Source: Limnothrix sp. CACIAM 69d
GTDB taxonomy: Bacteria > Cyanobacteriota > Cyanobacteriia > CACIAM-69d
Direction of reading: 5' to 3'
Length of the DNA stretch: 42,340 bases
Assembly: GCA_001913845.2 (NCBI GenBank)
Contig: MKGP02000036.1
Span: 1 to 42,340, forward strand
Shown here piece after piece: positions 27,410 to 42,285 of this stretch. Positions within the stretch are counted from its first letter, which is position 1; every line of letters starts with the position of its first letter. The notes beneath the pieces are model-generated. The model was given only the letters and a program-made list of their open reading frames with translations, made no database searches and was not told the DNA's origin. The translations under genes were made by a program, and so were the position numbers.

Positions 27410-27523
27410 CCCACGATCTGCTAACGGTGGAATCAGGGTTTTGGATGATTGGACGACGGTTTTCCTACCCTACAGTCATGTTTAAAACTCAAAAATTACT
27501 TTTTGTGGTCAACGAATCGAGCA

Positions 27524-28891
27524 ATGGGCAGAATCAGGAAACCGCGCAACTTCGAGCAACTCAGTGCTGCTATTCCCTTCGAGCAATGGTCGCCCCTGTT
27601 ACCGCGCTATGGCGTGATTGATCAGCAGGGCCGCTATCTACATTGGAATGATTTTCAATGGCGGGTTCAGCACGGCGATGATGAACAGGCCGCGTGGCTG
27701 GCAACCAAATGGGCTAGGGCCGTGATTCGCCAAGACATTCCAATTTTGGCTGCTGAGGGCGATCGCCCCTTTCGGTTTTGTATGCCCAATTCCCTGCTGG
27801 CCAACTTGCACCAAATCGATCGCATGGCCGGCTTCGGTGAAACAGTGGGCGATCCGGCCGTGAGTATTCGCACTGACGAAAAACATAGTTACCTGATCAA
27901 GAGCCTGATCCAAGAAGAAGCGATTACCTCATCACAGTTGGAAGGGGCTTCAACGACTCGGGCCGTAGCCAAAGAAATGCTTGAAAAGGGATTGGCTCCC
28001 AAAGATAAATCGCAACGAATGATTTTTAACAACTACCAATTAATGAAAAAGGTCGTTGAGAAAAAACATGAACCTCTATCAATTGACGTTATTCGCGAAC
28101 TTCATCAAATTGCCACGGATCAGGCAATCGAAAATCAAGCTATTCCTGGAGAATTCAGAACTGATAATCAGATTTTTATTGCTGACACTTACCAAGAGAC
28201 GATCTTTCAGCCGCCTGATTGGCAAACGATTCCCGATCGCCTAGTGGCCCTTTGTGCATTTGCCAACGGTGACTATGGCATCAATAATTCAAAGAGCTTT
28301 ATCCATCCCGTGGTTAAAGCAATCATTTTGCACTTTATGTTGGCCTATACTCATCCCTTTGGCGATGGAAATGGCCGCACTGCCCGCGCGCTATTTTATT
28401 GGAGTGTACTGAGGTCAGGCTATGACACTTTTGAATATGTTTCTATTAGCAAATTTATTCAAGCAAAACGCAGTGACTATGACAAAGCGTTTATCTACAC
28501 AGAAACTGATGACTTTGATTTGACCTATTTTCTCTACAACCAAACGGAAACCATCATCAAAGCAATTCAGGCTTTGCACGATTATCTGGAACGCAAAAAA
28601 CGAGAATTTTATGAATTCATGAGCTGGATTGATCGCAGCCCGATCGCCAAGACCCTGAAGCGAGGCCATTTGGAAATTTTAAAAGCCGCTTTTAAGCAAC
28701 CCGGTCGGGAATTCACCGCCAAGCAAACGGCTGCGGAATTTGGCATTAGCGAAAATACGGCCCGCAGCTATCTGCATAAATTGGTGGCTCAGGATTTGCT
28801 GATTGAGGCGCGATCAAAGGTGGAAAAATCAACCGTCTATATCGCGCCTGCCAATCTACCCGCCCGACTGCAATTGACCGGACTGCCTTAG
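27524..28891 (+). CDS. Fic-domain protein with inhibitory helix and C-terminal winged helix
   Basis: A 455-residue Fic protein, predicted to AMPylate a target protein. The active-site motif HPFGDGNGRTAR starts at His277 and is intact. An N-terminal inhibitory motif S-x3-E-G (Ser136 to Gly141, in TSSQLEGA) marks the self-inhibited class in which Glu140 would block ATP. The C-terminal 70 residues form a winged helix (TAAEFGISENTARSYLHKLVAQDLLIEA), a common Fic fusion. ATG 27524 gives the normal N-terminus; an in-frame start 75 bp upstream adds unlike sequence. It is convergent with proS, five bases apart, and lies in a segment flanked by direct copies of the proS 3' end. Composition is AT-richer than proS. 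Confidence 0.92.
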   Translation: MGRIRKPRNFEQLSAAIPFEQWSPLLPRYGVIDQQGRYLHWNDFQWRVQHGDDEQAAWLATKWARAVIRQDIPILAAEGDRPFRFCMPNSLLANLHQIDRMAGFGETVGDPAVSIRTDEKHSYLIKSLIQEEAITSSQLEGASTTRAVAKEMLEKGLAPKDKSQRMIFNNYQLMKKVVEKKHEPLSIDVIRELHQIATDQAIENQAIPGEFRTDNQIFIADTYQETIFQPPDWQTIPDRLVALCAFANGDYGINNSKSFIHPVVKAIILHFMLAYTHPFGDGNGRTARALFYWSVLRSGYDTFEYVSISKFIQAKRSDYDKAFIYTETDDFDLTYFLYNQTETIIKAIQALHDYLERKKREFYEFMSWIDRSPIAKTLKRGHLEILKAAFKQPGREFTAKQTAAEFGISENTARSYLHKLVAQDLLIEARSKVEKSTVYIAPANLPARLQLTGLP

Positions 28892-30699: not shown

Positions 30700-30795
30700 A
30701 AAACAGCCAGGAGCAATGCACAGTCCAGAATATCGCAGTTGGGGCGATCGGGCAGGGCGATCGCCCCAGAAACCAACAAACCGCAGCTAATTTCG

Positions 30796-31263
30796 CTAGA
30801 AATTCAAACCGATCCCCGATTGCTCCAACCCAGTAGCATTCAGTTCCTTAAGGCAAAATTCATCCCGGGCTTGGCAAACTGCCTCATAACTTCTGGGAGG
30901 CGAAATGGGCAAAGCGCGTAAATATAAAAAAGCGGCTTGCGCGCCAGATTCCAGCAACAAAACCAGATCAGTTTCGGGATTGTAGCTGTCAACAGCTTGT
31001 AAGATGTGACCATTCATATGGTGGTGATTCAGAATCACCGTATCAGGAAAGGCTAGCCAAGCATTTAAAAATGCGGCGAGCCGCGATCTCACAACATAAT
31101 GGGTACGGAATGTTTCTCCTGCAATGTTGAGCTGCGGTAAATTCAAGCTACAAATCACTGCACCTCGTCCTCCCGCCAAATAATTACTCCAAGCGTTATA
31201 TCCCAGAGCAATTAGATTTTTGGCAACAAAGGACTCCTGCCAATCAGAAGAAGATGTCGCCAT
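30796..31263 (-). CDS. Unknown protein, paralogue of the one at 33583-34017
   Basis: A 155-residue protein from ATG 31263, preceded by GGAG; a GTG at 31284 is a longer option. It shares a conserved start (NLIALGYNAWSNYLAGGRGAVICSL versus FLYIGYVAWQGYLQYGRGIVACTV) and end (LPISPPRSYEAVCQARDEF versus LAISPSECYRQVCDRWSEF) with the protein encoded upstream of nrdA, so the reductase genes are bracketed by two diverged copies of one family. No catalytic motif or membrane segment is seen. As the last gene of the riboswitch-led cluster it may be co-regulated, though an 8-bp hairpin lies in the gap before it. Function unknown. Confidence 0.75.
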   Translation of the reverse strand: MATSSSDWQESFVAKNLIALGYNAWSNYLAGGRGAVICSLNLPQLNIAGETFRTHYVVRSRLAAFLNAWLAFPDTVILNHHHMNGHILQAVDSYNPETDLVLLLESGAQAAFLYLRALPISPPRSYEAVCQARDEFCLKELNATGLEQSGIGLNF

Positions 31264-31315
31264 CCCAAAACTCCAATCCGTCACAATTTCAAATCAGAAC
31301 TCATGATCGAAAATG

Positions 31316-31335
31316 CTGATAATTATGATTATCAG
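31316..31335. promoter_or_regulatory. Perfect 8-bp hairpin between nrdB and the last gene
   Basis: CTGATAAT-TATG-ATTATCAG is a perfect dyad in the 101-bp gap. It could be an operator, an RNA stability element or a weak attenuator; no T-run follows on the minus strand. Confidence 0.4.
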
Positions 31336-31364
31336 TGATAAAGCCCAAGTCGCTGCTTGACTGG

Positions 31365-32084
31365 CTATCGATAACTCGGCAGGGCATCATTAGCAATTTC
31401 AAAAAATGCAGGCTGAATTGCGCGACGGGTTTCCACCAAATCAGAAGCACCTTGATAGAGCAAGCTATCTGACGCATCTAACCAACGTTGAGGCTTCCCG
31501 GAACGTCCTGCTTCAGGAATCCGCAAGCCATCAACCAGCCAACCAACGGTATCTCTTCTGAGGCGATCTAAGGAACTACTGTAGGTCAATCCTAAATCAT
31601 GGGCTGCTTGGCGATGGACGGCCGCATGGACAGACTCGTCACCGGAAATATCGCCCGAGATGATCCCTAAACCCACGCCACCAAACATCCGCAGCAAGGG
31701 CAGAATCACAAAGAAAACGGAATTTTCCAACACGAAGGCCTTGACCAATGGGTGGTCAGGATGATGAATCCATTGCTGATGAATTTGTTTGGCCTCTGCT
31801 TCGTCCCTATCGGTTGTTAGTTGATAGATTTGAGCAGCCATTCCTAACACTTTGTCGTGCCGTTCTTCATCAAGAATATTAGAACGCAGACATTTAACTG
31901 CCGTTGCCGGAAGTATCGTTTTGCCCAAAGCATCGTCTAGCCATTCCGCCACCTCTAATTCAAGAACACGCAGCGCCAGGGCCCGCCCCAAAACTTGATC
32001 CGCGCCCGGCATTGTGTTCATCCTTTCGCCACAAGTGGGTGTCCAGGAGCGCTTGCGAGCCAATTGTTCAGTGTAAAAGTCCAT
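31365..32084 (-). CDS. nrdB: Short class I ribonucleotide reductase small subunit (R2-like)
   Basis: A 239-residue ferritin-like protein, much shorter than the usual 320-380 residues. The dimetal site looks complete: an acidic helix LELEVAEWLDD (ligand probably Glu44), Glu73 and His76 in DEERH, Glu120 in LENSVFF, and Glu150 and His153 in DESVH. The position that carries the radical tyrosine in standard R2, four residues after the first histidine, is Leu80. So the protein probably stores its oxidising equivalent on the metals or elsewhere. It lies 12 bp after nrdA with an AGGAAG ribosome site overlapping the nrdA stop. A different ferritin-like oxidase is possible, but the pairing with nrdA argues for R2. 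Confidence 0.85.
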   Translation of the reverse strand: MDFYTEQLARKRSWTPTCGERMNTMPGADQVLGRALALRVLELEVAEWLDDALGKTILPATAVKCLRSNILDEERHDKVLGMAAQIYQLTTDRDEAEAKQIHQQWIHHPDHPLVKAFVLENSVFFVILPLLRMFGGVGLGIISGDISGDESVHAAVHRQAAHDLGLTYSSSLDRLRRDTVGWLVDGLRIPEAGRSGKPQRWLDASDSLLYQGASDLVETRRAIQPAFFEIANDALPSYR

Positions 32085-32096
32085 CAGAAATGCTTC

Positions 32097-33476
32097 CTAT
32101 TCAGCACAAGCAACACATTCATCGGCCGACAGATCGCAAGTGACCTGTTTCTGTTGAATGATGGTTTTATCAAGAGCAGCCTGCTGACGGACTGGCAATC
32201 GATAGTAGGTTGTCCAAAGTGCCGATCGCATCCATTTTTCTAGAAAATCTTGATCAATCACCTGGGTATCCCAAATGTTGAAGGATATCGAGTGAGCCTG
32301 TCCCGTCGCTTCCATGCTTTGCTGCCAACAATTGGCTAGCCGAAAATAGTCCTCATATCCCACCTCTGAAGCAATTTCCACTCGGGGATGATGATCATAG
32401 GTTTGAATTCCGAAAACACCACTGTAGCGATCGACTTCACAGGCGATCGGGGGGCTAATTTCCGGTGTTGTTGTGTAGCCATTGCGATCAACATAGCGAT
32501 AAGCGCAGGAAGCTGTTGGAGCGATCGTTAGACTGCGCTCCATTCCCTTTTTTTGGGCCCAAGCCGCCGCGCGATCGAACCCTTCAATCAGGCTGTTCAC
32601 TAATCGATCGGCCTTGGTTTGACTTCTTGCGTGGTCGATCGGCCGCAGGCGTAATTCCCAAGCTTCCACCAACTCGCGATAGGTAATACCTTCGATCGCC
32701 AAAAGTGATGCCAAGCCGATTACCCCCAACCCCACCTGTCGATCATGTTCAGGCGATCGATAAAGGCCACTCTCACCCACACCAGTTAGGGGATGAATTG
32801 CACAGAGCATCTTCATGCCATGCTCGAAAGCATCAGGAATATCCTCAATGCAGCACATTCCCAAGTTGACATGTTGCAGCAAACAGGTTCCCCGTGATGG
32901 CAAGAAGATTTCATTGCAAACATTGCCATACAGCAAATTTCCCGCAGCATCAGTCCGAGCTTTAGAGAGCCACAAACTGCCGGATTGCATTTGCTCCATG
33001 ATGTCATTCAGGTATGGCAATTGCAGCAAATCATCATGGACAATTAGCGTGCGTTTAGCCCAAGGCAAGCGATCAATCGGAATCTTAATAAAATCCTGAG
33101 CGTCGGGATGATGACTATCCAAGTGCAAGTTGACCGCCCCATTTTTAAATCGACCGCCCCGGCGGATCGTCTCATTCAAGACGCTGTAAATACGGGCAAA
33201 AGATGTGGGGCCAGAGGCCGTGACATTCGGCGAAACCGTACCCGCAGGCCGAAGCGCTGACAAGTTGATCGCAACACCAGCCCCATAGCGGAGGGCCTGG
33301 CTCGTGAAATGCCAACTATCTTCAATGCCATCCGGGCCATCCATTCGATCCTGCACCGCCAGAACCGTGCAGCTCACCGGCAGCCGCCCCGCAGGATCAT
33401 GGAGCCACTGATCCACTCGCCCTGTCACTGCCACAGTGGGATGGTCTGCCAATGCCAAAATTGACTGCTTATTCAT
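32097..33476 (-). CDS. nrdA: Short class I ribonucleotide reductase large subunit (R1-like)
   Basis: A 459-residue catalytic subunit from ATG 33476 (TTG 33494 is the alternative). It lacks the ATP-cone and the N-terminal helical domain, beginning almost at the barrel. Catalytic residues are present: Cys36 in LPVSC, Asn185-x-Cys187-x-Glu189 in NVCNE, Cys198 in GTCLL, the radical-path tyrosine pair in TTYYRLP and a C-terminal CVAC. The 11-residue spacing between Cys187 and Cys198 and the IAPTASC phrase resemble class II enzymes and short cyanophage reductases. The tyrosine pair and the adjacent R2 gene indicate class I use. Missing the ATP-cone, it should lack that form of overall allosteric control. 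Confidence 0.88.
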   Translation of the reverse strand: MNKQSILALADHPTVAVTGRVDQWLHDPAGRLPVSCTVLAVQDRMDGPDGIEDSWHFTSQALRYGAGVAINLSALRPAGTVSPNVTASGPTSFARIYSVLNETIRRGGRFKNGAVNLHLDSHHPDAQDFIKIPIDRLPWAKRTLIVHDDLLQLPYLNDIMEQMQSGSLWLSKARTDAAGNLLYGNVCNEIFLPSRGTCLLQHVNLGMCCIEDIPDAFEHGMKMLCAIHPLTGVGESGLYRSPEHDRQVGLGVIGLASLLAIEGITYRELVEAWELRLRPIDHARSQTKADRLVNSLIEGFDRAAAWAQKKGMERSLTIAPTASCAYRYVDRNGYTTTPEISPPIACEVDRYSGVFGIQTYDHHPRVEIASEVGYEDYFRLANCWQQSMEATGQAHSISFNIWDTQVIDQDFLEKWMRSALWTTYYRLPVRQQAALDKTIIQQKQVTCDLSADECVACAE

Positions 33477-33582
33477 AAATGAAAGAGAACACAATGAACT
33501 AGCTCATGCATCGAGCTGATCCGCCGAAGCAATCATCAACATCAACACTGCAATCCTTGGTGTTAATCCAGCCTCTGTTGAG

Positions 33583-34017
33583 CTAAGAAGCCAGATTAAA
33601 TTCTGACCAGCGATCGCACACTTGGCGATAACACTCAGAAGGTGAAATTGCTAGGTTTTGCAGCCAGTCAATCTCCACATCTTGACCTTGCTTGACCAAA
33701 ATCAAAATCTCCCGATCGGGTGCATAGGTTTTGATCACGCTCAACAGGCGATCGATTGAACTAACAGGCACAAGGCAAAGGTCAAGGTATAAAGCAGCAA
33801 GGTCGAACGGAATATATTGCACAGACCTTGCCGTTGCATCCTCAATCCCACCCAAGCGATTAGTCACCGTTTTTTGAACTGTGCAAGCCACAATTCCTCG
33901 TCCATATTGGAGGTAGCCCTGCCATGCAACATAGCCGATGTACAGGAAGTTTTCCTGAATGAAAGTGGGTGATCCAACAGTCAGGTCAGACAACCTTGAG
34001 CTAGTGGGATGAATCAT
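33583..34017 (-). CDS. Unknown protein coupled to metE, paralogue of the one at 30796-31263
   Basis: A 144-residue protein from ATG 34017 (an in-frame start 30 bp upstream is possible). It overlaps the 3' end of metE by 17 bp, so translation is likely coupled. The best-conserved blocks with its paralogue are ENFLYIGYVAWQGYLQYGRG near residue 20 and SPSECYRQVCDRWSEF at the end. The centre (FDLAALYLDLCLVPVSSIDRLLSVIKTY) is an alpha/beta mix. There is no named family, signal or metal motif. Position between metE and nrdA suggests a role tied to the B12-independent enzymes. Confidence 0.75.
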   Translation of the reverse strand: MIHPTSSRLSDLTVGSPTFIQENFLYIGYVAWQGYLQYGRGIVACTVQKTVTNRLGGIEDATARSVQYIPFDLAALYLDLCLVPVSSIDRLLSVIKTYAPDREILILVKQGQDVEIDWLQNLAISPSECYRQVCDRWSEFNLAS

Positions 34018-36250
34018 GAATTTCTTCCCGCAGCTTTTGCGTGGCAAGCACCATATTTTTGAGCGCAGGAAGCACTTCTTCCCATCGGCGAGTTTTTAGC
34101 CCGCAGTCAGGATTAATCCAGGTTTGCTGAACAGGCAAAAGATTAGCGCCAGTGCGCAACTGCTGGAGAATTTGTTCCGCACTGGGAACGCTTGGACTGT
34201 GGACATCATAGACCCCGTTCCCAACTTGATACTGATATCCCGCATCCGTGATCTCAAAGAGCGTTGCGTTGTTGCTGCGGCTGTTTTCAATGGATAGAAC
34301 ATCAGCATCGAGGCGCTCAATATGCTCAATAATGTCTCCAAACTCGCAGTAGCACATATGCGTGTGAATCTGAGTTTCAGCCTTCGCGCCACCGGTGGCT
34401 AATCGGAACGAATCCACAGCCCAACTGAGGTATTCATTCCACCGGGCAGATTTCAAGGGCAATCCTTCCCGGAGAGCAGGTTCATCCACTTGCACCATGA
34501 CAGCTCCGGCTGCTTCCAAATCGGCAACCTCATCTCGTAAAGCCAGCGCAATTTGCATGGCCTGTTCACGGCGCGGGAGGTCAGCCCGAGGGAATGACCA
34601 ATTGATCATGGTGACTGGGCCCGTGAGCATTCCCTTCACAGGCTTGTTTGTCAATGATTGTGCAACTCGAAACTCCCGAACGGTCATGGGTTGCAATCGG
34701 GACACATCACCATAAATGATGGGTGGGCGAACGCAACGACTGCCATAACTCTGCACCCATCCATCTGTTGTGAAGGCAAAGCCCTGGAGTTGCTGTCCAA
34801 AATATTCCACCATGTCAGTCCGCTCAAACTCACCGTGAACTAACACATCTAGCCCAACGTCCTCTTGGAGTTTGATGCACTCTGCAATCTTGGTATCGAT
34901 CGCCTGGTGATAGTCCGCTTGGGAAACTTCCCCTTTCTTGTACCGGAGCCGCAGTTGTCGAATGTCTTGGGTTTGCGGAAAAGAACCGATCGTGGTGGTG
35001 GGCAGGGGGGGAAGTTTGGGTTGCTGATTCAGCCGTTGTTCATAGGGAAGGGAGCGCTGAAAATCCTCTACTTTGAGGGTTTGCAACACATCGCGCACTG
35101 CCGGGTTAGGTAAGTTGAAGTGCTTGAATGCCTGCCAACGCAACTCGATCGCCGCTTGCTCGCTGGTCGTGTCCTGTCCGTTGAGGGCGCTTGCCAGCAA
35201 CACCACTTCCGTTAACTTTTGCTCTGCAAAACTGAGCACATCGCGCAAGGGTTGAGGGAGTTGAGTTTCGCAGGTTGCGTCATGGGGAACAAACTGGAGT
35301 GATGCGGAGGGCTGAACACGTAAATTTGGTGTGATTGCCTGCAATTCCTGAAGCAGTTCCAACAGACCCTTGGGTTCAATGGCCCAAACGCTCCGTCCGT
35401 CCACAACACCGGCCCCAAGTACTTTGTCGCGAGGAAAACCATGGGTTTTTACTAAAGATAGATTGTTGCCTCGCGTAAAATCGAGGCTAACTCCAGCTAC
35501 CGGGAGTTGCATCACCCAGTTATAGGCATCCCCCAGATCATCAAAGTAGGTGACCAGTTGAATCGGCAGCCCCGCAGTTGCTAGTTGATGGTAGGTGTGT
35601 TTAATTGCAGTTTCTAAATCACCGGCATGACTGGTCACTAAGGTTGGCTCATGGAATTGCACCTCGGTGATTCCATGAGATTTCAACTGCCCCAGCAGGT
35701 CAAGGTAGAGAGGCAGCAACCGATCCAAATCTGAGTAGAGATCGTTGGAGCGCCGGCTGAGGGTGAGCAGCGTGACCGGACTGAGGATCACGGGAGTCGT
35801 TCGATCGCTGAGAATGAGCTGTGCTCGCTTGACCGTTGCTAAAAAATCATCAAAATTGGCCGCGGGAGCAAGATCAGACTCAATTTCGGGCACGAGATAG
35901 TGATAGTTGGTATCAAACCATTTCGTCATTTCGAGTGCAGGAATCCCGTCTTTGCCCCTGGCCATCGCAAAGTACTGATCAATGCCTGTGAACTGTCGGA
36001 ACCGAGCGGGAATTAACCCCAGACGCACTGACCAATCTAGAACGTGGTCGTAAAGAGTTTGGTCTCCGACGGCAACTCGATCGACCCCAGCTTTTAACTG
36101 AACTGTCCAAGCATGGGTTTCCACGGCTTCTACGACCGATCGCAAGGCGTTGATATCACATTTGCCATGCCAAAAAGACTCTAGGGACTTTTTGACTTCA
36201 CGATTTTTGCCCATGCGGGCATAGCCCAAGGTGGCGGTTTGAATAACCAT
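34001..36250 (-). CDS. metE: Cobalamin-independent methionine synthase
   Basis: A 749-residue MetE, which transfers the methyl group from methyltetrahydropteroyl-triglutamate directly to homocysteine without vitamin B12. Both barrels are present. The N-terminal one begins IQTATLGYARMGKNREVKKSLESFW, and the catalytic one begins near PPLPTTTIGSFPQT. Zinc ligands appear in IHTHMCYCEF (His and Cys) and WINPDCGLKTRRW (Cys), with the VQVDEPALREGLP substrate loop. The start at ATG 36250, with AGGAG upstream, fits the family exactly; upstream in-frame codons are not family-like. A cobalamin riboswitch lies on the same strand upstream, predicting expression only when B12 is scarce. Confidence 0.97.
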   Translation of the reverse strand: MVIQTATLGYARMGKNREVKKSLESFWHGKCDINALRSVVEAVETHAWTVQLKAGVDRVAVGDQTLYDHVLDWSVRLGLIPARFRQFTGIDQYFAMARGKDGIPALEMTKWFDTNYHYLVPEIESDLAPAANFDDFLATVKRAQLILSDRTTPVILSPVTLLTLSRRSNDLYSDLDRLLPLYLDLLGQLKSHGITEVQFHEPTLVTSHAGDLETAIKHTYHQLATAGLPIQLVTYFDDLGDAYNWVMQLPVAGVSLDFTRGNNLSLVKTHGFPRDKVLGAGVVDGRSVWAIEPKGLLELLQELQAITPNLRVQPSASLQFVPHDATCETQLPQPLRDVLSFAEQKLTEVVLLASALNGQDTTSEQAAIELRWQAFKHFNLPNPAVRDVLQTLKVEDFQRSLPYEQRLNQQPKLPPLPTTTIGSFPQTQDIRQLRLRYKKGEVSQADYHQAIDTKIAECIKLQEDVGLDVLVHGEFERTDMVEYFGQQLQGFAFTTDGWVQSYGSRCVRPPIIYGDVSRLQPMTVREFRVAQSLTNKPVKGMLTGPVTMINWSFPRADLPRREQAMQIALALRDEVADLEAAGAVMVQVDEPALREGLPLKSARWNEYLSWAVDSFRLATGGAKAETQIHTHMCYCEFGDIIEHIERLDADVLSIENSRSNNATLFEITDAGYQYQVGNGVYDVHSPSVPSAEQILQQLRTGANLLPVQQTWINPDCGLKTRRWEEVLPALKNMVLATQKLREEIHDSSH

Positions 36251-36909
36251 GGGAATTGAGGCTCCTGAAATTTTGTGAAATTTTGAGTGATGATGACAGC
36301 GCAGTTGAGGGGTGCTCGATCGAACAGAGCACCCGCCGATCGGCTGGGCAAGGCCGCGCGATGTCAAGGGATGAATGTTGAACCCAAGTCCCGGGCGACA
36401 GACAGACCTAATCCAGCCAAAATGCAGCGAGTATGGGCATTAATTTGAGAGTGCCCGAGTCTCGCTGGGGGGCTGAATCCACAAGATTTGCGGTTGTGCC
36501 CCTGTGCTGGAGTTTGTCACTGGCGAGAGCAACGAAGGTTGAGTTTGTCAGTCTTCTTAGTCTCGCTAACACCAAGTCCCGCTAACTTTGATTGGGCGAT
36601 CGGGTCTCTCACAATCTGGAGAAAGTCCAAAATGCAATCAGTGATCGGGAGGCCTGATCATCAGTCCCCGGTCATCGTGGTTGGCCCTTGCCATTGGGTA
36701 GAAACCGGATGGCCCTAGCGGTCAGCCCTTGGAGGGAATTGGGGTCTGCGCCCACCTGGACTTAGGAATTAGTCGGACAGAGAAGCACGGTCAAGGTGCT
36801 GAGCTGAAGCGTTGCGCTGTGAAGATTTGACGACCCAAGCCTTTGGCGGTCGTCAGCAAAATGCTGTAAGTTCATCTGTACCTCGCAGATGTTTAGGGCT
36901 TTGTAGGAT
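36251..36909 (-). other. Unusually long leader between the cobalamin riboswitch and metE
   Basis: About 660 bases separate the riboswitch core from the metE start, with no supported gene. Hairpins on the minus strand include CATCTG/CAGATG just after the riboswitch and GACGACC/GGTCGTC (about 36826-36860), which could form the expression platform. The remainder is unexplained. Confidence 0.5.
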
Positions 36910-37030
36910 TGAATCGGCGGGCATTCTGACTCGGAGAAACACTTCTCCTTCACAGCTGCGGGACAGTGCCGGATTCACACCGAACTTTCCCCGTTACCTC
37001 TAGCGGCTGCTCCCCGCTAGAACCGACTCG
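36910..37030 (-). ncRNA. Cobalamin riboswitch
   Basis: On the minus strand the sequence reads GGTAACGGGGAAAGTTCGGT, then GTGAATCCGGCACTGTCCCG, CAGCTGTGA and finally GAGTCAGAATGCCCGCCGA. This is the ordered set of conserved blocks of the B12-box riboswitch, in which adenosylcobalamin binding shuts off downstream expression. The peripheral stem just before it (CTAGCGG...CCGCTAG) is also present. It points at metE and the nrdAB genes. Confidence 0.95.
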
Positions 37031-37034
37031 GTGA

Positions 37035-37043
37035 AGTATAGCA
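37035..37043 (-). promoter_or_regulatory. Extended -10 promoter element ahead of the riboswitch
   Basis: TGCTATACT on the minus strand lies a few bases before the riboswitch 5' end, so transcription would start near 37028. It has the same extended -10 form as the argJ promoter. Confidence 0.5.
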
Positions 37044-37122: not shown

Positions 37123-40100
37123 CTAGCGGGTGTCGCCGATGAGGGTGAAGGCGGCCCAGTCGATCGGGTCGGGATATTCCTGAATGGTTCTCAGGGTGGC
37201 TTGGCGCAAGGCCGTTGCCTTGTCCATCCCTTGCCCCAGGAATTGATAGAACTGGGTCATCAGGAAGGCGGTGGGTGCGTCGGGCACGGCCCATTGGGTG
37301 ACGATCGCGCTGGGGGTTCCGGCCGCCAGGAGCGATCGGGACAAGCCCACAATCCCATCGCCGGAAATTGCCCCTTGACCCGTGTTGCAGGCGCTGAGAA
37401 CGACTAATTGCGCCTTTAAGTCCAGATTCAGTAGCTCTCGGGCGGTTAACCAACCGTCATCCCCCGGGCTGTTGCCGGGGGCCAGGGCGATCGCGCTGTC
37501 TAGGCCATGTTTCGCATCCAAAATCCCGTGAGTAGCCAAGTGGATCAGGCTGGCTTGCTCCATTTGCCCCAAGACGGCGGTTTTGGTGGCTTGGGATCCC
37601 AACAGGGGATGCGTGTTCAACATGCGGGCGATCGATTGGGCTTCGATTTCCGCATTGGGCAGCGGGGCCAACTGCGATCGGGTGTTGGTTCGGCTGCTGG
37701 GCAAGCGCGGCATGGTTGGATTACCCACGATCAAGGGGCGATCGGTCAGGGCTGTGCCTTCCTGGCGCAGGCGCTGGGCCTGGTGTTGGGTGCGATCGAG
37801 CACTTGAATCGAAGGAGCCATGGCCAAACTATGGCGCTCAATCAGGTATCGGCCTTGATCATCTTGCAGGGCCGAAAAGGGCACCAAGAACAAATCCTGC
37901 TGGGGCATCACAATCAGTCGATCGCCCGGTTGGGTGGGTAACCATTCAGCGATCGGCTCAATCAAAAGGCGATGGAGCTGGCGCAAACCGGGGGTGATCG
38001 ATCGCCGGTTGCCGTTCGCCGTGGACTGGGCCGATCGGCTGGCGGTGCGTGTTCCCAAAAACAACCGCAGCAACGGGATTTGATCGCGCAAGGTTTGGCT
38101 GTTGGGCAGGGGTACTTGGCGAAAATGCACCTGTCCCGAAGGTTGTACCACCCAAATATTGATAGCCAAGTCGAGGAGTTGGCGTTGGCCCCCGTGGTCT
38201 CGGGTATCCCGTTCGATCGCGTAGGAAATCAGAGTGGCGGACTGCTCGCGGGCCACCCGCTGGATTTGCCCTAGGTCGATCGAGTCCGTCAATTCCGATG
38301 GGTTAGGGGTTAGGGTCGATCGCGCGGCGGATCGATCACCCCATTGGCTTTCTTCCGCCAACAGTTTCAGGAGGGCTTGGGCCCGACCCCGTTCATTGGC
38401 CAGCAGGGCTTGTTCCGGTTTTTGGGCCGCAATCAACACCGTTTGCAAGGTGCTGTAGGTGGTTTCTTGGGTTTCAAAAATCGCCAGCCGGGCCCCATCA
38501 CTGGTCAGGTTTTCGCGCACCTGTTCCCAAGAGGCGATCGCCCGTTGCAGATAATCCGTGGCCGCGTCAAAGTCTTGGAGTCGATAGTACGTATCTCCCA
38601 GGTTAGACAGGGCCCGCGCCGTACCGTGGCGATCGCCCAAGGCCTGCGACAGGGCCAGGGACTTTTGTTGAACCGTGGCCGCGGCCCCGTAGTCTCCTTG
38701 GGCATAGTAGGCCAAACCCAAATTATCGAGGGTGCGGGCGATCGCCGGTTGGTCGTTCGCCTGCTCTGCCAGGGCCAAGCTGGCCTGATGTGCCCTCACG
38801 GCCGCCTCGTAGCGCGTGGCTTGGTAATCCAGCAGGCCAATTTGGGTGAGGGCACGGGCTTGATTACTCAAATCCCGATGTTGCTGGGCGATCGCCAGGG
38901 ACTGCTCAAAATAGGTGCGGGCTTGCTCCAGGTTTTGTTGATTAGTTGCCATCAGGCCCAAGTTATTCAGGATATTGCTTTCCAACGTGGGCGCAGGGTT
39001 CGATCTCAACAGGGCCAAGGCCTGCTCATAATGGGCGATCGCCTCTGGATATTGACCCAAAGCCCCGTAGCTACTGCCCAGGTCACTTTCGGCGATCGCG
39101 GCCAACAGGGGCTGATCGGTGGCCAAGTCACGACTTTCGCGATGGGCCAAAATCGCATCGCCATATTCACCCGCTTGGTAGTGGGCCCGGCCCAACCGCT
39201 GCAAGGCCACCACGATCGCCTTGCGATCGCCACTGTTGCGGGCCCGTTCCAGGTCTTTGCGCTGGCAATCTAACCAAACGGTGTTGTCGCAAAGGGCCAC
39301 TTGCAGGGTTTCGGCCCGCAAGGCTTGCAGATTCAACACTTGCCCCGGGTCGGTGACTGGGCCGTTGGCGGGGATACCCGAGGGATTTGTGCCCTCCAAG
39401 CCGGGCGATCGAGACCCCAGCAAAGCCGTTTGATTAATGGCCTGGTTGGTTTGGGAATTCACCACGCCGGCCGAATGCGCCAGGTTCGAGCCACCCTCTC
39501 CAATTGCACCACTGTTGGGTAAGGGGTTACTGCTCACCGGTAGCCCCGTCGCCAAGGTTCCCACCATCGAATTGTTGGCCGCATCCGTCACCCCCGAGAG
39601 CGGAACCAAAGGCGCTGCATTGGGCGACTGGCCGGAAGAAGGCGCGATCGACCCATTCAAAGATGCAGATGTTGGGACAGTTCCGGTGACGGGGGCCACA
39701 TTTCCGGCAACGCTATTCACGGATCCCGGATTCGCCGCAAAGGTCGCAGAAGCCAGATTCGCCCGCTGCACGATCGCATCGGAGCTAATGGCCGTGCTTA
39801 GGCTATTGCCAACCAGATTTGTAGTGCTAGCATTCGCAGTTCCCGCCACTGGGCTACTTCCCCCCGCGCTCACCGGTTGTTCGGTGGTGTTGGCCAAAGT
39901 GGACTGCACCAACCCATCCACATTGGCAGCCCAAGGGGCCGAAATGGGCGACTTACCTGTAGAGAAATGGATTCCTTGATTAGTGGGTGTCAACAAGCCG
40001 CCAAAGTTCGCGCTATCAAGGCTGAGGTTAACCGTAGCCACCGTGAATGAAGAACCTGTGTTCCCGGTGTTCCCGGTATTACCGGTGTTGGAACTGTTGT

Positions 40101-41892
40101 TCACCACGATCGGCTTCACCGGCAAGAAAGCAGATCGATCGTCATCATCCTCTGAACTGGTGGAATTGGTCGTGGGCGAGTCCACAGGGGCGATCGGGAT
40201 CAAGCTAAAGGAGGTGTTCAGGCCGCTAACGGTGGTGTTGGTGGTACTGGAATTGGAGCCAGTTTGCATGGGAGCCACCGGAATCAGCGACACTGAACTG
40301 CTCAGGGTTGGATTGGTACTGGGGGGATCGTTGGTTGTGCCAGGAATCAGGGTAATGGATCCGGGGTTGATCGTGCCCGTTGTCCCCGTGCCTGTGGGGT
40401 TCAGAGGAACAACAGGGCGTAGGGTTGTGGAGCCAGTGTTGGTGCTGCTGCTGGAACTGGTGCTGCTGGGCGAGGGCGTAGTGGGTCGGGTGGTGGTGGT
40501 CGCAACCACGGGCGAGGAAATGAAGGGAGCGCGATTGCTGCGGGCCGGTGTGGTGCCGAAGGCGAGGGTGGTTTGACCATTACGATCGCTGAAAATCGGT
40601 TCAAAGACCGTGCGAAACAGCACCCGATCGCCCGTCGGTTGCGTCACAAACAATTGACCGCCCGTGCGCAGGGGCAAATTCCCGGCGATCGCTCCTGAAC
40701 TCACTAAAAAAAGATTGTGATCACTGATGATGCCGCTGTCGGGGTGGTGCAAGCCATATAAATCCACCTGCCGATCGCCCCAGAGGGTCAACTGTCCCCC
40801 GGCGCTCAACCGCAAAGGATTCGTGGGGTTGTCGCGCCCGATCGCCGCTTGCCCCGCCAACAAGTGCAAATCGCCCGTGGTGCTGAGCTGACTAGACAGC
40901 AGCAGCAAGTTATGGGCCGCCGACAGGGTGGCCGTTTCGGCCGTGGCTGACTGCACCGCCACATCCCCCGCCACCAAGGGGCCCTCGGAATGGCCGATCG
41001 AAACCGTGCCATCGGGGCGCACTGTCAAGGCATTGGCCGTGACCGGTTGCCCCGCCAGCAGTTCCGGAATCGTTTGCGGAGCGATCGGGCCCCAGGTCAA
41101 ATCCGCACCGGGCCGCCCCCCGATCGGCAAATCCAACGCCAGCACCGACCCTTCCGGCGTGAACCGCACAAAGCGATCGCCCGGAACCGCCGCCACCATC
41201 AGCCGCCCTCCCGGAGCCGACAGGGTTCCCACGCTCAACACCGTGCCCCCCACCAAACTCAGACTTTGACCCGTTGGCACGGCCAGGGCTGCCCGGTTCA
41301 AAATTCCCGCCGGTTGCGACAGGGCAAACGCCAACCCCGTTGGATCGCCCAGCAAATTCGCGTATTGATTGGATCCCATCGCCCGGAACCACAATTCCCC
41401 AGACTCACCAAAGCTCACCCCCGTGGCTGTGGTGGCCGTGAAGGAAGCGGGCACATTCAGCCGAGCATTGGGCCCAAACACCAGACCCGCCGGATTCACC
41501 AAAAATAGATTGGGGTTGCCACCGCTGACCTGGATGAGTCCATCAATTCGCGATGGATCGCCCCCCACCACACGCCCCAGAATGTTGCGCAAGTCCGGCG
41601 TGGCCAGGAAATTCGCAATTTCCTGGGTGTTGAGATTAAACCGCTCAAAGCTATGGAATAGGTTGGTCCCATCGCCCGATCGACTGCCGCCGCTGATATC
41701 GAGGCGATCGCCCTGGGGAGTCACCACCGTGCCCGTGCCGTCGGCCGCCGGGGCGATCGACTGGGCCCAAACCGCCCCCGCGTCAGCGCCCAGGCTCCCG
41801 ATCGTTAAGAAACCCGCAATTCCCGCAATTAAACATCCCCCAACGCCCGCCCCCACGAAGGAGCAGCCACCTAAGTTCCGAAAGACATGCAT
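37123..41892 (-). CDS. Secreted FHA-TPR-CHAT protein
   Basis: A 1589-residue exported protein starting at ATG 41892 (MHVFRNLGG). After a signal segment (GVGGCLIAGIAGFLTI), residues about 45-300 form a filamentous-haemagglutinin-type secretion domain with NLFHSFERFNL and NLFLVNPAGLVFGPNA, the two-partner secretion signature. A long Ser/Thr/Asn/Gly/Pro-rich linker follows (about 440-850). Then come tetratricopeptide repeats (about 880-1180, with the repeating pattern ALxxIGxLxYxxxxYxxA). The C-terminal CHAT caspase-like protease domain is last, with the His1455 (LATHG) and Cys1502 (LSACNTG) dyad intact. Related proteins are common in filamentous cyanobacteria, but their substrate is unknown. 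No TpsB-type outer-membrane transporter lies in the window. Confidence 0.9.
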   Translation of the reverse strand: MHVFRNLGGCSFVGAGVGGCLIAGIAGFLTIGSLGADAGAVWAQSIAPAADGTGTVVTPQGDRLDISGGSRSGDGTNLFHSFERFNLNTQEIANFLATPDLRNILGRVVGGDPSRIDGLIQVSGGNPNLFLVNPAGLVFGPNARLNVPASFTATTATGVSFGESGELWFRAMGSNQYANLLGDPTGLAFALSQPAGILNRAALAVPTGQSLSLVGGTVLSVGTLSAPGGRLMVAAVPGDRFVRFTPEGSVLALDLPIGGRPGADLTWGPIAPQTIPELLAGQPVTANALTVRPDGTVSIGHSEGPLVAGDVAVQSATAETATLSAAHNLLLLSSQLSTTGDLHLLAGQAAIGRDNPTNPLRLSAGGQLTLWGDRQVDLYGLHHPDSGIISDHNLFLVSSGAIAGNLPLRTGGQLFVTQPTGDRVLFRTVFEPIFSDRNGQTTLAFGTTPARSNRAPFISSPVVATTTTRPTTPSPSSTSSSSSTNTGSTTLRPVVPLNPTGTGTTGTINPGSITLIPGTTNDPPSTNPTLSSSVSLIPVAPMQTGSNSSTTNTTVSGLNTSFSLIPIAPVDSPTTNSTSSEDDDDRSAFLPVKPIVVNNSSNTGNTGNTGNTGSSFTVATVNLSLDSANFGGLLTPTNQGIHFSTGKSPISAPWAANVDGLVQSTLANTTEQPVSAGGSSPVAGTANASTTNLVGNSLSTAISSDAIVQRANLASATFAANPGSVNSVAGNVAPVTGTVPTSASLNGSIAPSSGQSPNAAPLVPLSGVTDAANNSMVGTLATGLPVSSNPLPNSGAIGEGGSNLAHSAGVVNSQTNQAINQTALLGSRSPGLEGTNPSGIPANGPVTDPGQVLNLQALRAETLQVALCDNTVWLDCQRKDLERARNSGDRKAIVVALQRLGRAHYQAGEYGDAILAHRESRDLATDQPLLAAIAESDLGSSYGALGQYPEAIAHYEQALALLRSNPAPTLESNILNNLGLMATNQQNLEQARTYFEQSLAIAQQHRDLSNQARALTQIGLLDYQATRYEAAVRAHQASLALAEQANDQPAIARTLDNLGLAYYAQGDYGAAATVQQKSLALSQALGDRHGTARALSNLGDTYYRLQDFDAATDYLQRAIASWEQVRENLTSDGARLAIFETQETTYSTLQTVLIAAQKPEQALLANERGRAQALLKLLAEESQWGDRSAARSTLTPNPSELTDSIDLGQIQRVAREQSATLISYAIERDTRDHGGQRQLLDLAINIWVVQPSGQVHFRQVPLPNSQTLRDQIPLLRLFLGTRTASRSAQSTANGNRRSITPGLRQLHRLLIEPIAEWLPTQPGDRLIVMPQQDLFLVPFSALQDDQGRYLIERHSLAMAPSIQVLDRTQHQAQRLRQEGTALTDRPLIVGNPTMPRLPSSRTNTRSQLAPLPNAEIEAQSIARMLNTHPLLGSQATKTAVLGQMEQASLIHLATHGILDAKHGLDSAIALAPGNSPGDDGWLTARELLNLDLKAQLVVLSACNTGQGAISGDGIVGLSRSLLAAGTPSAIVTQWAVPDAPTAFLMTQFYQFLGQGMDKATALRQATLRTIQEYPDPIDWAAFTLIGDTR

Positions 41893-42285
41893 GGTAAGGA
41901 CAACAAGCAGTGAGTAGGGGTCAGATCCAGCGAGATCAAGACACAATCAAAATCAAGATGCCATCAAATCGCTGAAGTTTTGGGAGAGCTGCTCAACAAG
42001 CAACATACCCATTTTTCGCAAGAATTTGATCCCATACGCCCCGTGGTCAGCCTAGAACATTCGTTTATGAAATTTAGAAACGATGCAAGCTGTTCAAGAT
42101 CCGCTTCTGGATCCATTCAAAAGCTGATGAGACAGTCAATTCAATTACTGGCCAAGTTCTGTTGCTGATTTTTTGCATTACAGCCAAAACGCTAAATTTC
42201 TTATCCATAATTCTTTACAGCCTTTACCTAGAACGATCAGTACGATATAGTTATAAGTACAGTTGGGCTATCGTCAGGAAAATTT
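41893..42285. other. AT-rich intergenic region before the transposase
   Basis: These 393 bases separate the CHAT gene from the transposase start. The last 90 bases (TACGATATAGTTATAAGTAC region) probably include the insertion-sequence left end, but without the right end the inverted repeat cannot be fixed. A 62-codon plus-strand frame at 41980-42168 has no recognisable features. Confidence 0.5.

What the first reader, a model, noticed from the sequence alone, without database searches (positions are those of the whole stretch)
30796..37043. Riboswitch-led operon pairs MetE with a class I ribonucleotide reductase: a B12-independence module
A cobalamin riboswitch precedes metE, and on the same strand follow an unknown gene overlapping metE, nrdA, nrdB and an unknown paralogue, with short gaps. 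Cyanobacteria mostly rely on a B12-dependent class II reductase (NrdJ). Co-expressing MetE and an oxygen-dependent class I reductase when B12 is low would replace both core B12 enzymes at once. Riboswitch control of metE, and separately of class I nrd genes in actinobacteria, is established. This combined cyanobacterial operon with two unknown genes is what may be new.
Basis: partly seen in the sequence, partly recalled or inferred. Interest (0 to 1): 0.87.

Follow-up and report, generated by a model that had tools for sequence, protein, structure and literature searches.

The report
Phage-type nucleotide reductase in B12-riboswitch operon
A cyanobacterium carries, inside an operon led by a vitamin-B12-sensing RNA, both a B12-free methionine synthase and a miniature DNA-building enzyme so far known mainly from cyanobacterial viruses, which suggests that a phage-type enzyme was recruited as a spare for use when B12 runs short.

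Summary
On the minus strand: cobalamin riboswitch (36899-37042), metE, small ORF X1, nrdA, nrdB, X1's paralogue X2. The arrangement is conserved in a second species of the genus, with nrdA and nrdB under purifying selection (dN/dS about 0.05). Among 386 cyanobacterial genomes only these two carry it. X1/X2 are a widespread cyanobacterial family, distantly related to the carboxysome chaperone CcmS. They normally follow riboswitch-led metE as metE-X1-X2, so the reductase genes look like an insertion between X1 and X2. The genome keeps the B12-dependent enzymes (MetH, intein-split NrdJ) and a B12-synthesis gene. Its other cobalamin riboswitches precede cobalt-uptake/CobW-like genes and (weaker match) a CbiX-like gene. 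Best reading: a low-B12/low-cobalt backup module replacing both core B12 enzymes, built by adding a phage-type reductase to a B12-repressed metE operon. B12 response of nrdAB and enzyme activity are inferred, not shown. The function of X1/X2 is open.

The parts
36899..37042 (-). Cobalamin riboswitch aptamer (RF00174)
   Evidence: 61.5 bits, E 5.8e-13; present upstream of the same operon in L021
36873..36891 (-). CATCTGCGAGGTACAGATG hairpin directly after the aptamer, probably part of the switching region
   Evidence: near-invariant hairpin in 12 aligned riboswitch leaders of X-containing cyanobacterial operons
36251..36898 (-). 648-base leader between aptamer and metE
   Evidence: 87% identical in L021; folds below shuffles, z -5.35; no minus-strand terminator-like site found in it
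34001..36250 (-). metE, cobalamin-independent methionine synthase (749 aa)
   Evidence: TIGR01371 938.6 bits, above cut-off; PF08267 and PF01717
33583..34017 (-). X1, CcmS-like small protein (144 aa), overlaps metE by 17 bases
   Evidence: family found in 32 of 386 cyanobacterial genomes; profile match to CcmS, probability 95%, shuffles at most 1.7%
32097..33476 (-). nrdA, class O / Cyano SP ribonucleotide reductase alpha subunit (459 aa)
   Evidence: 7urg_A 437.7 bits, E 4.6e-130; about 50% identity to cyanophage alphas; N185-C187-E189, C198, Y424-Y425 and C-terminal CVAC kept; dN/dS 0.058
31365..32084 (-). nrdB, small ferritin-like beta subunit (239 aa); ligands E42, E73, H76, E120, E150, H153; Leu80 where Tyr122 would be
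   Evidence: phrog_6799 E 2.8e-70; invariant ligands across 19 sequences; AlphaFold2 model pLDDT 89.8 matching class I R2 structures; dN/dS 0.049
30796..31263 (-). X2, paralogue of X1 (155 aa from the ATG; an upstream GTG at 31284 is possible)
   Evidence: in a supported X2 clade of 16 rows; 54-64% identical to X2 of other metE operons

Best explanation
A riboswitch-led backup module for low corrinoid or low cobalt. When B12 is plentiful it binds the leader and represses the operon, and MetH and NrdJ do the work. When B12 is scarce the operon is expressed: MetE replaces MetH, and the class O reductase, a dimetal enzyme expected to need no B12, replaces NrdJ. The reductase genes are a phage-type alpha-beta pair inserted between X1 and X2 of an older riboswitch-metE-X1-X2 operon. 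X1/X2 are CcmS-like proteins, perhaps dedicated chaperones or assembly factors of the low-B12 response. Shown: the gene order, its conservation in two species, purifying selection, the class of the reductase, the metE-X association, the presence of MetH, NrdJ and a B12-synthesis gene, and the other genes behind cobalamin riboswitches. Inferred: co-transcription, B12 repression of nrdAB, enzyme activity, direction of transfer, role of X1/X2.
For: Riboswitch and operon anatomy, repeated in L021. Reductase; tree with the window pair sister to viral contig L038 (99/95) inside a supported clade of 13 whose other members are viral. dN/dS 0.05-0.06. Older operon metE-X1-X2, directly adjacent in five loci of four families (L152, L153, L158, L159, L162), with riboswitches in the four where the leader is covered. 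X present in 17 of 23 MetE genomes against 15 of 363 others, Fisher p 2e-16. B12-dependent counterparts and synthesis: NrdJ, MetH, cobI/cbiL. Other riboswitches of the genome precede DUF1636-like/HupE-like/CobW-like genes and, with a weaker match, a CbiX-like gene (gene names by eye). Harrison 2019 (PMC6370689) proposed that cyanophages use this reductase to avoid dependence on host B12; in Limnospira a cobalamin riboswitch 337 bases upstream is induced together with metE (PMC8400943).
Against: No expression data. No clear terminator or expression platform was found, so the riboswitch might act on metE translation only. The 106-base gap before nrdA holds a weak terminator-like hairpin (33501-33517; terminator-like sites in the region are no more frequent than in shuffles). 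PMC12918982 says the class O enzyme is yet to be biochemically characterised. Tree branches leading to the window pair are long, so direction of transfer is uncertain. The organism seems able to make its own corrinoid.
Confidence: 0.74

Rival explanations
1. The riboswitch controls metE only (for example at its ribosome binding site), and the reductase genes are transcribed or translated separately, as a general second reductase for oxygen, stress or repair rather than for low B12.
For: Long 648-base leader without an evident terminator; 106-base gap with a weak hairpin before nrdA, kept in outline in L021; gaps less conserved (79%) than the genes.
Against: No promoter-like site on the minus strand between metE and nrdA (the scan covers sigma-70 type only); X1 overlaps metE; nrdAB lies between two genes of a riboswitch-metE family; whole order conserved in two species.
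Confidence: 0.17
2. The reductase pair is a recent phage remnant or selfish cargo that landed in the operon and does not serve the host.
For: Nearest relatives are phage genes; restricted to one genus and absent from a congener.
Against: dN/dS 0.05-0.06 at dS 0.27-0.45 between species, catalytic and metal residues kept, no other phage gene seen between metE and X2.
Confidence: 0.06
3. On origin only (compatible with the backup role): the class O enzyme is an old cyanobacterial enzyme, lost from almost all lineages and picked up by phages, rather than a phage gene captured by the host.
For: Long branch of the window pair; C-terminal CXXC motif, which Burnim 2022 calls the more ancestral state.
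Against: Found in 1 of 142 genera; the metE-X1-X2 operon exists widely without it; the tree cannot be rooted here.
Confidence: 0.2

Closest known systems
Class O / Cyano SP ribonucleotide reductase (Synechococcus phage S-CBP4, PDB 7urg; Burnim 2022 PMC9531940; Harrison 2019 PMC6370689)
   Same: Minimal alpha without ATP cone or N-terminal helical domain, small beta directly downstream, E-E-H-E-E-H ligands, no Tyr122, YY dyad, C-terminal cysteine pair.
   Different: Chromosomal in two cyanobacterial species, 45-53% identical to phage forms, shorter C-terminal linker, placed in a riboswitch-metE operon.
Cobalamin-riboswitch control of metE in cyanobacteria and other bacteria
   Same: Aptamer upstream of metE, long leader.
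   Different: Here followed by a ribonucleotide reductase and two CcmS-like genes.
B12-riboswitch control of class I nrdABS in Streptomyces (from own knowledge; not checked in a paper here)
   Same: A B12-independent reductase under a cobalamin riboswitch, class II enzyme elsewhere in the genome.
   Different: Conventional class I enzyme, separate from metE.
CcmS, beta-carboxysome assembly chaperone (NF049993; Cheng 2024 PMC11635287)
   Same: Distant profile similarity over about 110 residues, similar size, cyanobacteria.
   Different: No X member reaches the family cut-off; X genes lie with metE and B12-related genes in the loci read.

Membership tests
Class O / Cyano SP ribonucleotide reductase | Minimal alpha (about 430-480 aa), no ATP cone | tested here: met
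   459 aa; only the PF02867 barrel found, no ATP-cone or N-terminal domain; 7urg aligned over residues 14-431
Class O / Cyano SP ribonucleotide reductase | Small ferritin-like beta gene directly downstream | tested here: met
   12-base gap; phrog_6799 2.8e-70; model matches R2 structures
Class O / Cyano SP ribonucleotide reductase | Beta ligands E-E-H-E-E-H, no Tyr122 | tested here: met
   E42, E73, H76, E120, E150, H153 invariant; Leu80
Class O / Cyano SP ribonucleotide reductase | YY dyad and C-terminal CXXC or CXC | tested here: met
   Y424-Y425, CVAC
Class O / Cyano SP ribonucleotide reductase | Clade placed outside classes I and II | not tested
   Only a tree among class O sequences was made
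Conventional class I NrdAB | Full-length alpha with helical domain and PF00268-type beta | tested here: not met
   No such Pfam domains in either protein; NCBIfam class models far below cut-off
Cobalamin riboswitch RF00174 | Aptamer above gathering score | tested here: met
   61.5 against 31.5 bits
Cobalamin riboswitch RF00174 | Binds corrinoid and represses the downstream genes | not testable with these tools
   needs expression or probing data
MetE | TIGR01371 equivalog cut-off | tested here: met
   938.6 against 929.95 bits
CcmS (NF049993) | Family cut-off of 125 bits | tested here: not met
   8 of 32 X members match weakly, best E 0.0012; distant homology by hhalign
CcmS (NF049993) | Binds the CcmK1 C-terminal tail | not testable with these tools
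   biochemical

The most novel reading that the evidence does not exclude
A phage-lineage class O reductase has become a working host enzyme that, with MetE, lets a cyanobacterium copy its DNA and make methionine without B12, under one B12 riboswitch, aided by dedicated CcmS-like chaperones that define a previously unnamed cyanobacterial low-B12 protein family.
Probability: 0.4. Interest if true: 0.88.

Novelty: new variant of a known kind. Interest (0 to 1): 0.78.

Why it matters
It ties a phage-type reductase of uncertain biochemistry to a clear physiological role: the proposal that cyanophages carry this enzyme to escape dependence on host B12 becomes testable in a cell that seems to use the same enzyme for that purpose. 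It also offers a genetic setting in which class O activity can be tested by complementation, shows how riboswitch operons can gain new members, and points to a conserved cyanobacterial gene family tied to B12 status.

Tried and rejected
AlphaFold2 on X2 with X1 gave no usable model (pLDDT 34). No relatives of X1/X2 were found among viral contigs. The first genome-contig scan found nothing; the second found class O genes only in MAGs and single-cell contigs, which may be phage sequence and were not followed up. No cobalamin riboswitch was found near 15 viral/MAG class O loci. proS as a member of the operon was rejected: in L021 about 960 bases of other sequence lie between X2 and proS, and in the congener G386 proS has other neighbours. 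No paper describing a class O reductase in a riboswitch-metE operon was found in the library searched; subscription journals are mostly missing from it.

Full report
What is there. On the minus strand a cobalamin riboswitch aptamer (36899-37042, 61.5 bits) is followed by a 648-base leader, metE (34001-36250), X1 (33583-34017, overlapping metE by 17 bases), nrdA (32097-33476), nrdB (31365-32084) and X2 (30796-31263). The same arrangement, riboswitch included, occurs in a second species of the genus (L021). Between the two species dN/dS is 0.10 for metE, 0.058 for nrdA, 0.049 for nrdB, 0.27 for X1 and 0.18 for X2, so all five genes appear to be kept by selection.

The reductase. nrdA is only 459 residues. 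[quoted passage not shown]), and it is about 50% identical to alphas of cyanopodoviruses and siphoviruses. This is the group called Cyano SP by Harrison 2019 (PMC6370689) and class O by Burnim 2022 (PMC9531940). Catalytic residues are kept (N185, C187, E189, C198, Y424-Y425, C-terminal CVAC; their roles follow from E. coli NrdA). nrdB has no Pfam match but matches the phage beta family (phrog_6799, 2.8e-70), keeps the E-E-H-E-E-H ligands with Leu in place of Tyr122, and its AlphaFold2 model (pLDDT 89.8) matches class I R2 structures, weakly but consistently. In a tree of 90 class O alphas the window pair is sister to viral contig L038 (99/95), inside a supported clade of 13 whose other members are viral contigs. 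The branches are long and the tree is unrooted.

How rare it is. Of 386 cyanobacterial genomes, one per species, only the two of this genus have the alpha; a third congener and three other members of the family do not. Class O hits elsewhere in genome contigs are MAG or single-cell contigs that may be phage sequence (not followed up).

The operon it sits in. X1/X2 relatives occur in 32 of 386 genomes, 21 of 142 genera. X is present in 17 of 23 genomes with this MetE and in 15 of 363 without (p 2e-16; related genomes are not independent, so the p-value overstates). Twelve of the other fetched loci combine metE with X behind a cobalamin riboswitch (a thirteenth, L153, is cut within metE). metE-X1-X2 directly adjacent is seen in L152, L153, L158, L159 and L162, from four families. 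Six further loci have a riboswitch and X without metE, most with DUF1636-like, CobW-like or methyltransferase genes nearby, and in L161 X2-like genes lie beside metH (gene names by eye). The window's X2 falls in a supported X2 clade. So the reductase pair lies between two neighbours of an older operon. In L151 and L157 other small genes lie between X1 and X2, so this gap has taken inserts before.

X1/X2. Eight of 32 members match the carboxysome chaperone CcmS weakly; profile against profile gives 95% probability, E 1.8e-8, while 50 column shuffles reach at most 1.7%. They are distant CcmS relatives, not CcmS. A role as chaperones for MetE or other low-B12 proteins is a guess by analogy.

Genome context. 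The B12-dependent NrdJ (with two apparent inteins), MetH and the B12-synthesis gene cobI/cbiL are present, and the window's alpha is the only PF02867 match in the genome (the monomeric NrdJ is not reached by that model). The genome's other cobalamin riboswitches precede a DUF1636-like/HupE-like/CobW-like set and, with a hit below the cut-off, a CbiX-like gene. That is a coherent low-corrinoid response.

Placement. In the congener G386 and in G133 the sequence similarity to the window ends just upstream of proS, and none of the operon follows. GC at third positions is 0.43-0.53 in the operon genes against 0.75 in proS. Both fit acquisition of the operon within the genus, but do not prove it.

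What is not shown. No expression data exist here; no terminator or clear expression platform was found, though a hairpin CATCTGCGAGGTACAGATG directly after the aptamer is near-invariant in 12 leaders. Whether the riboswitch reaches nrdAB, whether the enzyme is active, the direction of transfer, and the role of X1/X2 are inferences.

Noticed in passing
L022:3079-7593 (own genome, contig C52): The class II nrdJ gene reads as one 1504-aa ORF that appears to hold two inteins.
   Followed up: partly
window 36873-36891 and leaders in L150-L164: Near-invariant CATCTGCGAGGTACAGATG hairpin right after the cobalamin aptamer in cyanobacterial metE-X leaders.
   Followed up: partly
L161:6617-13941: X2-like genes lie beside metH, without a cobalamin riboswitch hit; two IsrR RNA matches lie further off.
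   Followed up: no
L165, L166, L167, L168: X1-type genes with methyltransferase, CobW-like or DUF1636-like genes behind a cobalamin riboswitch.
   Followed up: partly
L021:4147-5107 and L232 around 5920: The site upstream of proS is variable: a nucleotidyltransferase-like gene lies there in G386, and about 960 bases of extra sequence in G033.
   Followed up: partly
window 30700-30796: GC-rich inverted repeat GGGGCGATCGCCCTGCCCGATCGCCCC between X2 and proS, also in L021; possible operon end.
   Followed up: no
window 37123-41946: Long filamentous-haemagglutinin-like protein with TPR-like repeats and a CHAT-like C-terminus (by eye) next to the riboswitch.
   Followed up: no
window 27449-28891: Fic-like protein (480 aa, by eye), also in L021.
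   Followed up: no
L015:4067-4345: Group I intron (86.5 bits) near a class O reductase gene in a gammaproteobacterial MAG contig.
   Followed up: no
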